A stretch of 64,000 nt of DNA from Brachybacterium timonense (lineage in GTDB: Bacteria > Actinomycetota > Actinomycetes > Actinomycetales > Dermabacteraceae): contig NZ_LT984895.1 of assembly GCF_900258505.1 (NCBI RefSeq), positions 1,083,952 to 1,147,951 of the forward strand, in the 5' to 3' direction. The notes under the pieces were generated by a model, which saw nothing but the letters and a program-made list of their open reading frames with translations, made no database searches and was not told the origin of the DNA. Made by a program: the position numbers and the translations under genes. Positions 52,568 through 54,993 of this stretch are shown here, in pieces. Every line of letters starts with the position of its first letter. Position 1 is the stretch's first letter.

Positions 52568-54691
52568 ATGACGTCCGCCACCACCGACCGTCCAGCCGCA
52601 GAGACCCCTGAGAGCGACGCCTGGAAGGGCTTCGAGCCCGGCCCGTGGCAGGAGGACATCGACGTACGCGACTTCATCCTGCGTAACTACACGCCGTACG
52701 AGGGTGATGCGTCGTTCCTGGCCGGCCCCACCGAGAAGACCCTGAAGGTGTGGGACCACCTGGAGAAGAACTACCTCTCCGAGGAGCGTCGCCGTCGCGT
52801 ATTCGATGTCGACACCGAAACTCCCGCTGACATCGATGCGTTCCCGGCCGGCTACATCTGCCCGGAGGATGACGTGATCGTCGGTCTGCAGACCGACGTC
52901 CCCCTCAAGCGCGCCATGATGCCCAACGGCGGCTGGCGCATGGTGGAGACCGCGATCAAGGAGGCCGGCAAGGAGCCGGATCCGGACATCAAGAAGATCT
53001 TCACCCGGTACCGCAAGACCCATAACGATGCGGTCTTCGACATCTACACCCCGCGCATCCGCGCCGCCCGCTCGAGCCACATCATCACCGGCCTGCCGGA
53101 TGCCTACGGCCGCGGCCGCATCATTGGCGACTACCGTCGTCTGGCGCTGTACGGCGCGGACTTCCTGATCAAGCAGAAGCAGGCCGCGAAGGACGCTGTG
53201 GCTGACAAGCCGTTCAGCGAGCACTGGGCGCGCTACCGCGAGGAGCACGCCGAGCAGATCAAGGCGCTGAAGAAGCTCGTGCACCTGGGTGAGCTGTACA
53301 ACCTCGATCTCACCCGTCCGGCGCGCAACGCTCACGAGGCCGTGCAGTGGACCTACATGGCATACCTTGCCTCGGTGAAGAGCCAGGACGGCGCCGCCAT
53401 GTCGCTGGGCCGCCTCTCGGCCTTCCTGGATGTCTACTTCGAGCGCGATCTGAAGGCCGGCCTCATCACCGAGACCGACGCGCAGGAGATGATCGATGCG
53501 ATCGTCATCAAGCTGCGTATCGTCCGCTTCCTGCGCACCATCGATTACGACCAGATCTTCTCCGGCGACCCGTACTGGGCGACCTGGTCCGACGGCGGCA
53601 TGGGCGAGGATGGCCGCACCCTGGTCACCAAGACCTCGTTCCGTCTGCTGCAGACCCTGCGCAACCTGGGGCCGGCCCCCGAGCCGAACATCACCCTGTT
53701 CTGGGATCCGGCCCTGCCCCAGGGATACAAGGACTTCTGCTCCGCGATCTCGATTGAGACCTCCTCGGTGCAGTACGAGTCCGACAAGCAGATCCGCGAG
53801 CGCTGGGGTGACGACGCCGCGATCGCCTGCTGCGTCTCCCCGATGAAGGTCGGCAAGCAGATGCAGTTCTTCGGCGCTCGTGTGAATGCCGCGAAGTCAC
53901 TGCTCTACGCCATCAACGGCGGCCGCGACGAGATGAGCGGCAAGCAGGTCACCGAGCCCGGACTGTTCGAGCCGATCGCAGGCGACGGTCCGCTGGACTT
54001 CGACGAGGTCTGGCAGAAGTACGAGGAGATGCTCGACTGGGTGGTGGGCACCTACGTCGAGGCGCTGAACATCATCCACTACTGCCACGACCGCTACGCC
54101 TACGAGTCCATCGAGATGGCGCTGCACGACTCGGAGATCGTGCGCACCATGGGCTGCGGCATCGCGGGCCTGTCGATCGTGGCGGACTCGCTGTCTGCCA
54201 TCAAGTACGCCAAGGTCACTCCCGTGCGTGATGAGACCGGCCTCGTGGTCGACTACATCACCGAGGGTGACTTCCCGGTGTACGGCAACGACGACGATCG
54301 CGCTGACGACATCGCCGCTACCGTCGTGCACACGGTGATGAGCAAGATCAAGGAGATCCCGCTGTACCGGGATGCGATCCCGACCCAGTCGGTGCTCACC
54401 ATCACCTCGAACGTCGTGTACGGCAAGGCCACCGGCTCCTTCCCGTCGGGCCACCAGAAGGGAACCCCCTTCGCTCCCGGCGCGAACCCGGAAAACGGCA
54501 TGGACAGCCACGGCATGGTGGCCTCGATGCTGTCGGTGGGCAAGCTCGACTACAACGACGCGCTCGACGGCATCTCGCTGACCAACACCATCACCCCGCA
54601 GGGACTCGGACGCACCAAGGATGAGCAGGTCAAGAACCTGGTCGGCATCCTCGACGCCGGGTTCATCATGGACGAGCAGGCAGAGGCCTGA
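52568..54691 (+). CDS. pflB: Pyruvate formate-lyase catalytic core lacking the glycyl-radical domain
   Basis: A 707-residue PFL, about 50 shorter than E. coli PflB (760). The core is intact: the catalytic Cys421-Cys422 pair (Ile-Ala-Cys-Cys-Val-Ser-Pro) and Thr-Asn-Thr-Ile-Thr-Pro-Gln-Gly-Leu-Gly. It then ends at Leu-Asp-Ala-Gly-Phe-Ile-Met-Asp-Glu-Gln, just where the glycyl-radical domain (Arg-Val-Ser-Gly-Tyr) should follow. That domain is the next gene. The stop is a clean TGA with a new ribosome binding site downstream, not a simple frameshift. It converts pyruvate and CoA to acetyl-CoA and formate under anoxia. Start set by AGGAGG six bases upstream. Confidence 0.93.
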   Translation: MTSATTDRPAAETPESDAWKGFEPGPWQEDIDVRDFILRNYTPYEGDASFLAGPTEKTLKVWDHLEKNYLSEERRRRVFDVDTETPADIDAFPAGYICPEDDVIVGLQTDVPLKRAMMPNGGWRMVETAIKEAGKEPDPDIKKIFTRYRKTHNDAVFDIYTPRIRAARSSHIITGLPDAYGRGRIIGDYRRLALYGADFLIKQKQAAKDAVADKPFSEHWARYREEHAEQIKALKKLVHLGELYNLDLTRPARNAHEAVQWTYMAYLASVKSQDGAAMSLGRLSAFLDVYFERDLKAGLITETDAQEMIDAIVIKLRIVRFLRTIDYDQIFSGDPYWATWSDGGMGEDGRTLVTKTSFRLLQTLRNLGPAPEPNITLFWDPALPQGYKDFCSAISIETSSVQYESDKQIRERWGDDAAIACCVSPMKVGKQMQFFGARVNAAKSLLYAINGGRDEMSGKQVTEPGLFEPIAGDGPLDFDEVWQKYEEMLDWVVGTYVEALNIIHYCHDRYAYESIEMALHDSEIVRTMGCGIAGLSIVADSLSAIKYAKVTPVRDETGLVVDYITEGDFPVYGNDDDRADDIAATVVHTVMSKIKEIPLYRDAIPTQSVLTITSNVVYGKATGSFPSGHQKGTPFAPGANPENGMDSHGMVASMLSVGKLDYNDALDGISLTNTITPQGLGRTKDEQVKNLVGILDAGFIMDEQAEA

Positions 54692-54741
54692 GCGTCCACT
54701 CCACGACCATCCCCACGACCACCGTCCAGAAGGAGAATCAC

Positions 54742-54993
54742 ATGTCCACCAAGACCTTCAATGAGCGTCTCGAGTCCATGAAGGCCAACCGCGCCTGCAA
54801 CAACATGGAGTCCGGTCTCTACCACGCCAACATCAATGTTCTGAACAAGGACACCCTGCTGGACGCGATGGAGAACCCGGAGAACTACCCGAACCTCACC
54901 GTTCGTGTGTCCGGCTACGCGGTGAACTTCGTGAAGCTCACCCGTGAGCAGCAGCTGGACGTGCTCGACCGCACGTTCCACCAGAGCGCCTGA
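54742..54993 (+). CDS. grcA: Stand-alone glycyl-radical subunit (GrcA/YfiD-like)
   Basis: An 83-residue protein matching the PFL C-terminal domain. It has Asn-Lys-Asp-Thr-Leu-Leu-Asp-Ala-Met-Glu-Asn-Pro, then Val-Arg-Val-Ser-Gly58-Tyr-Ala-Val-Asn-Phe, then Leu-Thr-Arg-Glu-Gln-Gln. Gly58 is the radical site (E. coli PFL Gly734). E. coli GrcA (127 residues) can replace an oxygen-cleaved domain; here the protein is shorter, has a different N-terminus and should be an obligatory part of the enzyme. AGAAGGAG lies just upstream; the gap to pflB is 50 bp. Confidence 0.92.
   Translation: MSTKTFNERLESMKANRACNNMESGLYHANINVLNKDTLLDAMENPENYPNLTVRVSGYAVNFVKLTREQQLDVLDRTFHQSA

What the first reader, a model, noticed from the sequence alone, without database searches (positions are those of the whole stretch)
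52568..54993. Naturally split pyruvate formate-lyase with its glycyl-radical domain as a separate gene
Seen: the 707-codon pflB ends at the point where the radical domain begins in other PFLs, and the domain (Arg-Val-Ser-Gly-Tyr, Gly58) is an independent 83-codon gene with its own ribosome binding site before pflA. Known: E. coli GrcA/YfiD can replace an oxygen-damaged domain, but there PflB also keeps its own. Inference: this is an obligate two-subunit glycyl-radical enzyme. The radical-bearing piece is cheap to replace after oxygen damage, which suits a facultative anaerobe living near oxygen.
Basis: partly seen in the sequence, partly recalled or inferred. Interest (0 to 1): 0.78.

Follow-up and report, generated by a model that had tools for sequence, protein, structure and literature searches.

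The report
Pyruvate formate-lyase split into two proteins
The only gene for the fermentation enzyme pyruvate formate-lyase found in this bacterium is divided in two, so that the glycine predicted to carry the enzyme's oxygen-sensitive radical sits on a separate 83-residue protein that likely can be swapped when damaged; the same division is found in many other bacteria and appears to have arisen at least twice.

Summary
Confirmed. pflB (52568-54691, 707 aa) stops where E. coli PFL reaches residue 694; the radical domain (Gly58 = E. coli Gly734) is a separate 83-aa gene (54742-54993) with its own Shine-Dalgarno, followed by pflA. Searches of the 99.98%-complete genome find no other PFL and no other such domain. 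The split is widespread: 57 of 396 genomes of the order carry the small gene, and 67 of 151 Corynebacterium genomes carry the pair; none shows an intact PFL of this family. NCBI names the small protein GrcA2, an "autonomous cofactor"; here it is the only radical-bearing part. Type A (actinomycetes) is sister to fused bifidobacterial PFL. A second split (type B, small subunit GrcA3), about 13 residues nearer the N terminus, occurs in Lachnospiraceae and Coriobacteriia; one origin for both is rejected (AU p = 5e-8). Best reading: an obligate two-subunit glycyl radical enzyme, the natural counterpart of the engineered, active E. coli tPFL:truncYfiD pair. Exchange after oxygen damage is inferred; type B in presumed anaerobes weakens a purely "near oxygen" rationale. 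No paper in ten open-access searches; PDB 38la/38lb look like type-B large subunits. My fold model of the pair failed.

The parts
52568..54691 (+). pflB, large subunit: PFL core of 707 aa without the glycyl-radical loop
   Evidence: residues 17-700 align to E. coli PFL 9-694
53828..53833 (+). codons of Cys421-Cys422 (ACCVS motif), the presumed counterpart of the catalytic pair Cys418/Cys419
   Evidence: motif at residues 420-424; roles of C418/C419 from the abstract of PMC12338860 (start seen in the listing); equivalence by motif
54662..54688 (+). short C-terminal tail FIMDEQAEA after the last shared segment NLVGILDAG
   Evidence: 5-15 residues, beginning with F, in 27 of 27 type-A pairs compared
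54692..54741 (+). 50-nt gap with Shine-Dalgarno AAGGAG at 54730-54735
   Evidence: gap 3-122 nt and an SD-like motif (permissive pattern) in 27 of 27 type-A pairs compared
54742..54993 (+). grcA2, radical-bearing small subunit of 83 aa
   Evidence: NF008341 165 bits over cut-off 145; PF01228 56-106
54742..54813 (+). N-terminal extension (residues 1-24) with no counterpart in the fused bifidobacterial PFL read (L068); R9 and M13 in 25 of 25, R17 in 24 of 25; a weakly predicted helix
   Evidence: helix 6-19, block pLDDT 62-65
54913..54915 (+). codon of Gly58, predicted radical site (E. coli Gly734)
   Evidence: gap-free alignment; sequence
55010..55052 (+). 19-bp hairpin between grcA2 and pflA, a possible mRNA 3'-end stabiliser or U-less terminator
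   Evidence: 19-nt arms, 95% complementary, 5-nt loop; region folds at z -4.57
55150..56001 (+). pflA, radical SAM activase
   Evidence: TIGR02493 308 bits over 231.75; a CxxxCxxC motif follows the small gene in 26 of 26 type-A loci scanned

Best explanation
This locus encodes pyruvate formate-lyase as two separate proteins, a 707-residue large subunit that lacks the radical loop and an 83-residue small subunit that carries the predicted radical glycine, and since searches of the genome find no other copy of either part the two likely must join to make any active enzyme. Shown: the split, its conservation, and no intact copy found. Inferred: GrcA2 docks into the PflB barrel in the place of E. 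coli PFL residues 701-759; PflA abstracts a hydrogen from Gly58 of the docked subunit; the loop swings in and Gly58 hands the radical to Cys421/Cys422 for pyruvate cleavage. Inferred, less sure: after oxygen cuts GrcA2 at Gly58, the whole small subunit, including the strand that in E. coli stays behind as a stub (residues 696-733), leaves and is replaced by a fresh one, sparing about 90% of the enzyme. The N-terminal extension of GrcA2 would be the new docking element that replaces the covalent link.
For: One PF02901 match, two PF01228 matches and two TIGR01255 matches in the 99.98%-complete genome, all of them these two genes. In 57 of 57 order genomes with GrcA2 over cut-off the one strong PFL match (950 bits or more) stops at profile position 678-702 of 744. 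In Corynebacterium 67 of 151 genomes have this PFL; in 55 the match ends at 678-693 (one of them in pieces) with the small gene as a further match, in 12 one match runs on to the end through a stop codon (3 of these 12 read: the stop lies between the genes). Pair and pflA stay adjacent where read. Together PflB and GrcA2 cover E. coli PFL 9-694 and 701-758. The same cut was engineered in E. coli: tPFL (1-695) plus truncYfiD (61-127) has kcat 204 +/- 32 per s against 105 +/- 7 for intact PFL (PMC8683613, passages). Invariant columns of GrcA2 include R9 and M13 of the extension. In viral contigs 14 of 17 loci with a type-B small subunit have no PFL large subunit in the stretch held, which fits a replaceable part.
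Against: No biochemistry. In E. coli, tPFL with full-length YfiD showed no detectable binding and 32-fold less radical than cPFL:YfiD (0.5 against 15.9 uM), and tPFL:truncYfiD reached only 2.7 uM (PMC8683613), so the natural pair needs something E. coli lacks; that the extension supplies it is a guess. The AlphaFold model of a stop-read-through chain was poor (mean pLDDT 51.5), and GrcA2 alone reached only 67, so docking is not shown by modelling. Type B in presumed anaerobes weakens the oxygen-exchange rationale. A split carried down one lineage could also be neutral.
Confidence: 0.87

Rival explanations
1. GrcA2 is a true spare part, as NCBI's name says, for a PflB that works or once worked on its own; the truncated PflB is a decayed enzyme.
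For: Name and family NF008341; E. coli GrcA/YfiD is such a part (PMC8683613, passages).
Against: PflB lacks the radical glycine, and no intact PFL of this family was found here, in the other 56 GrcA2 genomes of the order or in 67 Corynebacterium genomes; both proteins are strongly conserved. The small protein scores far below the GrcA (79.8 against 170) and GrcA3 (99.8 against 158) cut-offs.
Confidence: 0.04
2. The split is neutral: one gene fission became fixed in an ancestor, both halves became necessary, and there is no repair benefit. The enzyme is two-part, but exchange after damage plays no role.
For: Type A is one clade in the tree (support 89, not starred), so one event suffices for it; type B is common in groups I recall as anaerobes.
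Against: Two separate splits at nearly the same place in one enzyme (AU p 5e-8 against one origin), a Lachnospiraceae MAG with a second small-subunit gene on another contig (G787), and viral contigs that carry the small part without the large one in the stretch held suggest that the part has a use of its own.
Confidence: 0.35
3. The two frames are joined during translation (frameshift or stop read-through) so that a fused PFL is made.
For: In 12 of 27 type-A pairs the two genes share a frame, and in 11 of these a single stop lies between them.
Against: Frame relations are spread 12, 8 and 7 over the three frames, the in-frame stops are TGA, TAA or TAG, and a Shine-Dalgarno-like motif (permissive pattern) precedes the small gene in 27 of 27.
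Confidence: 0.01
4. Sequencing or assembly artefact or a pseudogene in this isolate.
For: None found for this locus; one other locus does look like this (Rhodoblastus L105/L183, one internal TAA).
Against: Same split in independent genomes of several families; 2292 relatives of the small protein at E 0.001 or better, of which the 120 listed are 81-107 aa long.
Confidence: 0.005

Closest known systems
E. coli pyruvate formate-lyase PflB (PDB 1h16, 2pfl)
   Same: Core 17-700 aligns with 9-694; the ACCVS cysteine pair; Gly58 of GrcA2 equals Gly734; a PflA-type activase gene beside it.
   Different: One chain in E. coli, two here, broken in the 695-700 stretch.
E. coli GrcA/YfiD spare part and the engineered tPFL:truncYfiD pair (PMC8683613; PDB 6owr)
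   Same: Small stand-alone radical domain, 25-82 aligned gap-free to YfiD 69-126; the natural break lies at the engineered one (1-695 and 61-127).
   Different: E. coli keeps an intact PflB; YfiD has a disordered 60-residue N-terminus; here the small gene is the only copy found and has a different 24-residue N-terminus.
Type-B split PFL of Lachnospiraceae and Coriobacteriia (small subunit NCBIfam GrcA3; large subunits resemble PDB 38la, 38lb)
   Same: PFL without the radical domain and a small radical gene downstream.
   Different: Cut near E. coli 681-683 instead of 694-701, so NLVxMLDGY lies on the small subunit; the large one often ends in an acidic tail; separate origin.
Fused PFL of Bifidobacteriaceae
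   Same: Sister group in the tree; the fused L068 runs LDAGNGHGLYHANINVL across the site of the split.
   Different: One chain.
Split class II ribonucleotide reductase of Pseudomonas aeruginosa (PMC4520616, title and start of abstract seen in the listing)
   Same: A radical enzyme made from two polypeptides.
   Different: Another enzyme class; the cut does not isolate a glycyl radical domain (recalled).

Membership tests
Pyruvate formate-lyase (TIGR01255 / PF02901) | PFL core domain | tested here: met
   PF02901 642 bits, 3-647 of 647
Pyruvate formate-lyase (TIGR01255 / PF02901) | adjacent cysteine pair | tested here: met
   ACCVS, Cys421-422
Pyruvate formate-lyase (TIGR01255 / PF02901) | radical glycine loop in the same chain; score over 994.2 | tested here: not met
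   match ends at 679-680 of 744, 982 bits, under cut-off; the loop is on the second protein
Pyruvate formate-lyase (TIGR01255 / PF02901) | PflA-type activase | tested here: met
   TIGR02493 308 bits
Pyruvate formate-lyase (TIGR01255 / PF02901) | pyruvate + CoA to formate + acetyl-CoA | not testable with these tools
   needs an assay
NCBIfam GrcA2 (NF008341) | score over 145 bits | tested here: met
   165.2
NCBIfam GrcA2 (NF008341) | 'autonomous cofactor', i.e. a spare for a PFL that has its own radical domain (meaning taken from the name) | tested here: not met
   no intact PFL of this family in 57 of 57 order genomes or 67 of 67 PFL-bearing Corynebacterium genomes (in 12 the match spans a stop, 3 of them read)
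GrcA/YfiD (TIGR04365) | score over 170 bits, about 127 aa with a long disordered N-terminus | tested here: not met
   79.8 bits, 83 aa
GrcA3 / type-B split PFL | small subunit over 158 bits and carrying NLVxMLDGY | tested here: not met
   99.8 bits; the segment is on PflB here
Two-subunit enzyme | stable PflB-GrcA2 complex with the radical on Gly58 | not testable with these tools
   fold of a read-through chain was too poor to use

The most novel reading that the evidence does not exclude
Pyruvate formate-lyase has been cut in two at least twice in evolution, at two different points, each time turning the radical glycine into a consumable subunit that the cell replaces while keeping the barrel. 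GrcA2 and GrcA3, now filed as spare parts, are the essential radical subunits of these enzymes in most of the roughly 190 species genomes seen here, and phages carry just the consumable part to keep the host enzyme running.
Probability: 0.5. Interest if true: 0.78.

Novelty: new variant of a known kind. Interest (0 to 1): 0.64.

Why it matters
Glycyl radical enzymes are destroyed by air because the backbone is cut at the radical glycine. A natural enzyme with that glycine on an exchangeable 83-residue subunit lets one test directly, on mixing the two proteins, whether repair by part exchange works without any proteolysis or stub removal, and how PflA recognises a docked radical domain. It also corrects annotation: if the reading is right, 'autonomous cofactor' GrcA2 and GrcA3 genes mark obligate two-gene PFLs, so knock-outs, flux models and heterologous expression of pflB alone in Corynebacterium, Brachybacterium, Actinomyces relatives, Lachnospiraceae or Collinsella would be misread.

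Tried and rejected
Structure: a chain read through the stop of locus L170 with 22 alignment rows gave mean pLDDT 51.5 and pTM 0.46, too poor to use; GrcA2 alone gave 67.2 and pTM 0.45, used only as a weak hint for a helix at 6-19. I ran no fold search on either. A first mixed alignment (A2) appears to have scattered the small proteins over the large ones and was dropped.

A flag 'PFL in same frame' is wrong for L015, L016 and L021 (the script compared positions, not frames); one search shows different frames there. In one search, 67 of 80 named loci are flagged as having the domain in one frame with the core, three of them (L108, L120, L122) in short frames; 11 are split, and L105 and L112 are the remaining two. 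The 80 are the best of at least 588 relatives in a capped scan.

Tree: 88 rows of 95 candidates; L056, L108, L112, L120, L122 and L172 were missing and L063 too short (recount). Only every second fused named locus was offered. Support values are SH-aLRT from a quick search; type A as one clade has 89, not starred.

Considered and rejected: programmed frameshift or read-through, artefact, an extra intact PFL elsewhere. The third PF01228 match in type-A genome G037 is anaerobic ribonucleotide reductase, not PFL; other type-A genomes with a third match were not checked in this way.

Papers: ten searches listed no report that I could recognise as a naturally split PFL; the library is open-access only, the lists are capped and most subscription papers are missing. 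Passages were seen of PMC8683613, PMC12288474 and PMC13252398; others only in listings. I could not identify the depositors or organisms of 38la and 38lb.

Full report
WHAT IS THERE. pflB (52568-54691, + strand, 707 codons) is followed after 50 nt by an 83-codon gene (54742-54993) with AAGGAG six bases before its ATG, then by pflA (55150-56001). Upstream on the same strand lies a citrate synthase gene. PflB holds the whole PF02901 core and only positions 1-65 of PF01228; the small protein holds 56-106. Against E. coli PFL (1h16) PflB 17-700 covers 9-694 and the small protein 25-82 covers 701-758 without a gap, which puts Gly58 on Gly734. The pair thus stands for one chain, with only a few linker residues unaccounted for. 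PflB keeps the cysteine pair (Cys421-422). The genus is Brachybacterium by inference: a same-genus genome (G032, contig of 3,647,194 bases) has the length of the contig behind proteins named Brachybacterium muris.

THE ONLY COPY FOUND. The window lies in a 3.09-Mb genome rated 99.98% complete. It has one PF02901 match, two PF01228 matches, which are these two genes, and two TIGR01255 matches, again these two. So the searches find no intact PFL and no other GrcA.

HOW WIDE. Same genus: 15 of 36 genomes including this one have a PF01228 match, and in each it is the split pair; 21 have none (some of these genomes are incomplete). Order: 57 of 396 genomes have GrcA2 over its cut-off; 30 of these loci were read (L133-L162) and all 30 are stand-alone genes behind a PFL that ends without the domain. 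No match in a fused frame reaches the cut-off. In all 57, TIGR01255 finds one strong PFL (950 bits or more), ending at position 678-702 of 744, and no intact one (several of the longest run past the stop). Corynebacterium: 67 of 151 genomes have the PFL. In 54 the match ends at 678-693 and in one (G925) it lies in pieces on two contigs; all 55 have the small gene as a further match. In 12 one match runs to position 742-743 through one stop codon; I read 3 of these (L207-L209), where the stop lies between the two genes, and take the other 9 to be alike. Among 80 named genome loci found with GrcA2, 11 are split: Dermabacter, Brachybacterium, seven Corynebacterium, Actinomyces and a Trueperella MAG; 67 are flagged as in one frame with the core. 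In the protein database the 120 listed relatives of PflB (of 7999 scored) are 702-745 aa long. In 27 type-A pairs compared, the small gene sits 3-122 nt behind pflB with a Shine-Dalgarno-like motif in 27 of 27 (the pattern is permissive), and pflA's radical SAM motif follows in 26 of 26 scanned.

A SECOND, DIFFERENT SPLIT. Seventeen genomes of two other families of the phylum (f36, f57) end their PFL at 665-670 of 744 in 17 of 17; they were picked because one search had listed a stand-alone domain in them. The f57 small protein (L165) has its nearest named relatives in Collinsella and Enorma, and Collinsella belongs to the class Coriobacteriia; f36 is unnamed and I take it to be of the same class from its place in the tree. 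In a draw of 150 genomes from the family of a MAG titled Lachnospiraceae, 51 have a long PFL match ending at 663-704, of which 3 (G1014, G1046, G1056) also have an intact one (recounted; genomes with the PFL in pieces left out). I read 13 loci of that family and 7 of f36/f57: all 20 have the small gene downstream, at 14-433 nt. Here the segment that type A keeps at the end of PflB (NLVGILDAG) begins the small protein (DNLVxMLDGY), and the large one goes on into a variable, often acidic tail. The one small protein of these 20 that I scored is NCBIfam GrcA3 (L165, 167 bits over 158). On a tree of 88 cores type A is one clade (27 rows, support 89) next to the fused PFL of Bifidobacteriaceae, while type B lies among Bacillota. 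Holding A and B together is rejected (p-AU 5.4e-8), and holding B together without the nested fused row L201 is also rejected (p-AU 0.007), so L201 is a likely re-fusion, or B was split more than once. The labels were set from the gene structure before the tree was built.

HOW IT LIKELY WORKS. Andorfer et al. (PMC8683613; passages) cut E. coli PFL after residue 695 and supplied YfiD 61-127: that pair is active (kcat 204 +/- 32 per s; intact 105 +/- 7), though less of it is activated (2.7 uM radical against 15.9 for cPFL:YfiD). Natural type A is cut at the same place. In E. coli the remaining stub 696-733 must move aside before YfiD can bind and also serves as a recognition element; in the split enzyme the stub belongs to the replaceable piece. 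My inference is that the 24-residue N-terminal extension of GrcA2, absent from the fused sister read and with R9 and M13 in 25 of 25 and R17 in 24 of 25, has taken over docking. Its helix prediction is weak and the pair model failed. Replacement after oxygen damage follows from the chemistry but is untested, and type B in groups that I recall as anaerobes suggests that the split also suits cells that avoid air.

PHAGES. Viral contigs hold 17 loci (L221-L237) with a type-B small subunit (NLV/NLI segment read by eye in all 17; the script's pattern missed L223 and L224). 14 have no PFL core in the stretch held, and L226, L227 and L237 have a PFL large subunit beside it. Of three small proteins scored, L222 passes the GrcA3 cut-off (159 over 158) and L228 and L225 fall just under it (156 and 157.5). 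In L228 the gene follows NrdD and NrdG genes with phage relatives, and L225 and L227 have NrdD too, but the two neighbours of L226 match no phage family, so its viral nature rests on the collection. Some loci are near-duplicates (L229/L230, L227/L237), so this counts loci, not events. Hosts and habitats are not known from my calls. T4's own spare part Y06I is known (PMC8683613).

NOVELTY. No report of a natural split was found in ten searches (listed under tried and rejected). Still, NCBIfam has named both small families, and PDB 38la (687 aa, ends GKED) and 38lb (739 aa; aligned to residue 706, into a type-B-like tail, the rest not seen) are solved PFLs with no match to the radical domain, and no small chain of theirs was matched. 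So type B is at least being studied. I rate the finding a new variant of a known kind.

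Noticed in passing
L221-L237 (viral contigs), e.g. L228:4001-4228, L226:1932-3974: Stand-alone type-B (GrcA3-like) radical subunits in viral contigs, 14 of 17 loci without a PFL core in the stretch held; L226, L227 and L237 also hold a PFL large subunit without the domain; in L228 the gene follows NrdD and NrdG.
   Followed up: partly
window 55010-55052: A 19-bp hairpin between grcA2 and pflA without a following T run; long hairpins also stand there in some relatives (L053, L060, L170), not in all.
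   Followed up: partly
L201 (G1090): A fused PFL nested inside the type-B split clade: a likely re-fusion of the two genes.
   Followed up: partly
G787 (L112, L184): A Lachnospiraceae MAG with a type-B split PFL and a second small-subunit gene on another contig, a possible true spare.
   Followed up: no
L105 / L183 (Rhodoblastus acidophilus): A PFL matching 2-744 with one internal TAA: pseudogene or sequencing error, not a split of the kind described here.
   Followed up: no
L087 (Silvimonas terrae): A full-length PFL followed by a second, stand-alone radical domain in a 66-codon frame, a spare-part arrangement beside an intact enzyme.
   Followed up: no
window 52426-52437: Perfect palindrome CTCACATGTGAG upstream of pflB, a possible regulator site; not compared with relatives.
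   Followed up: no
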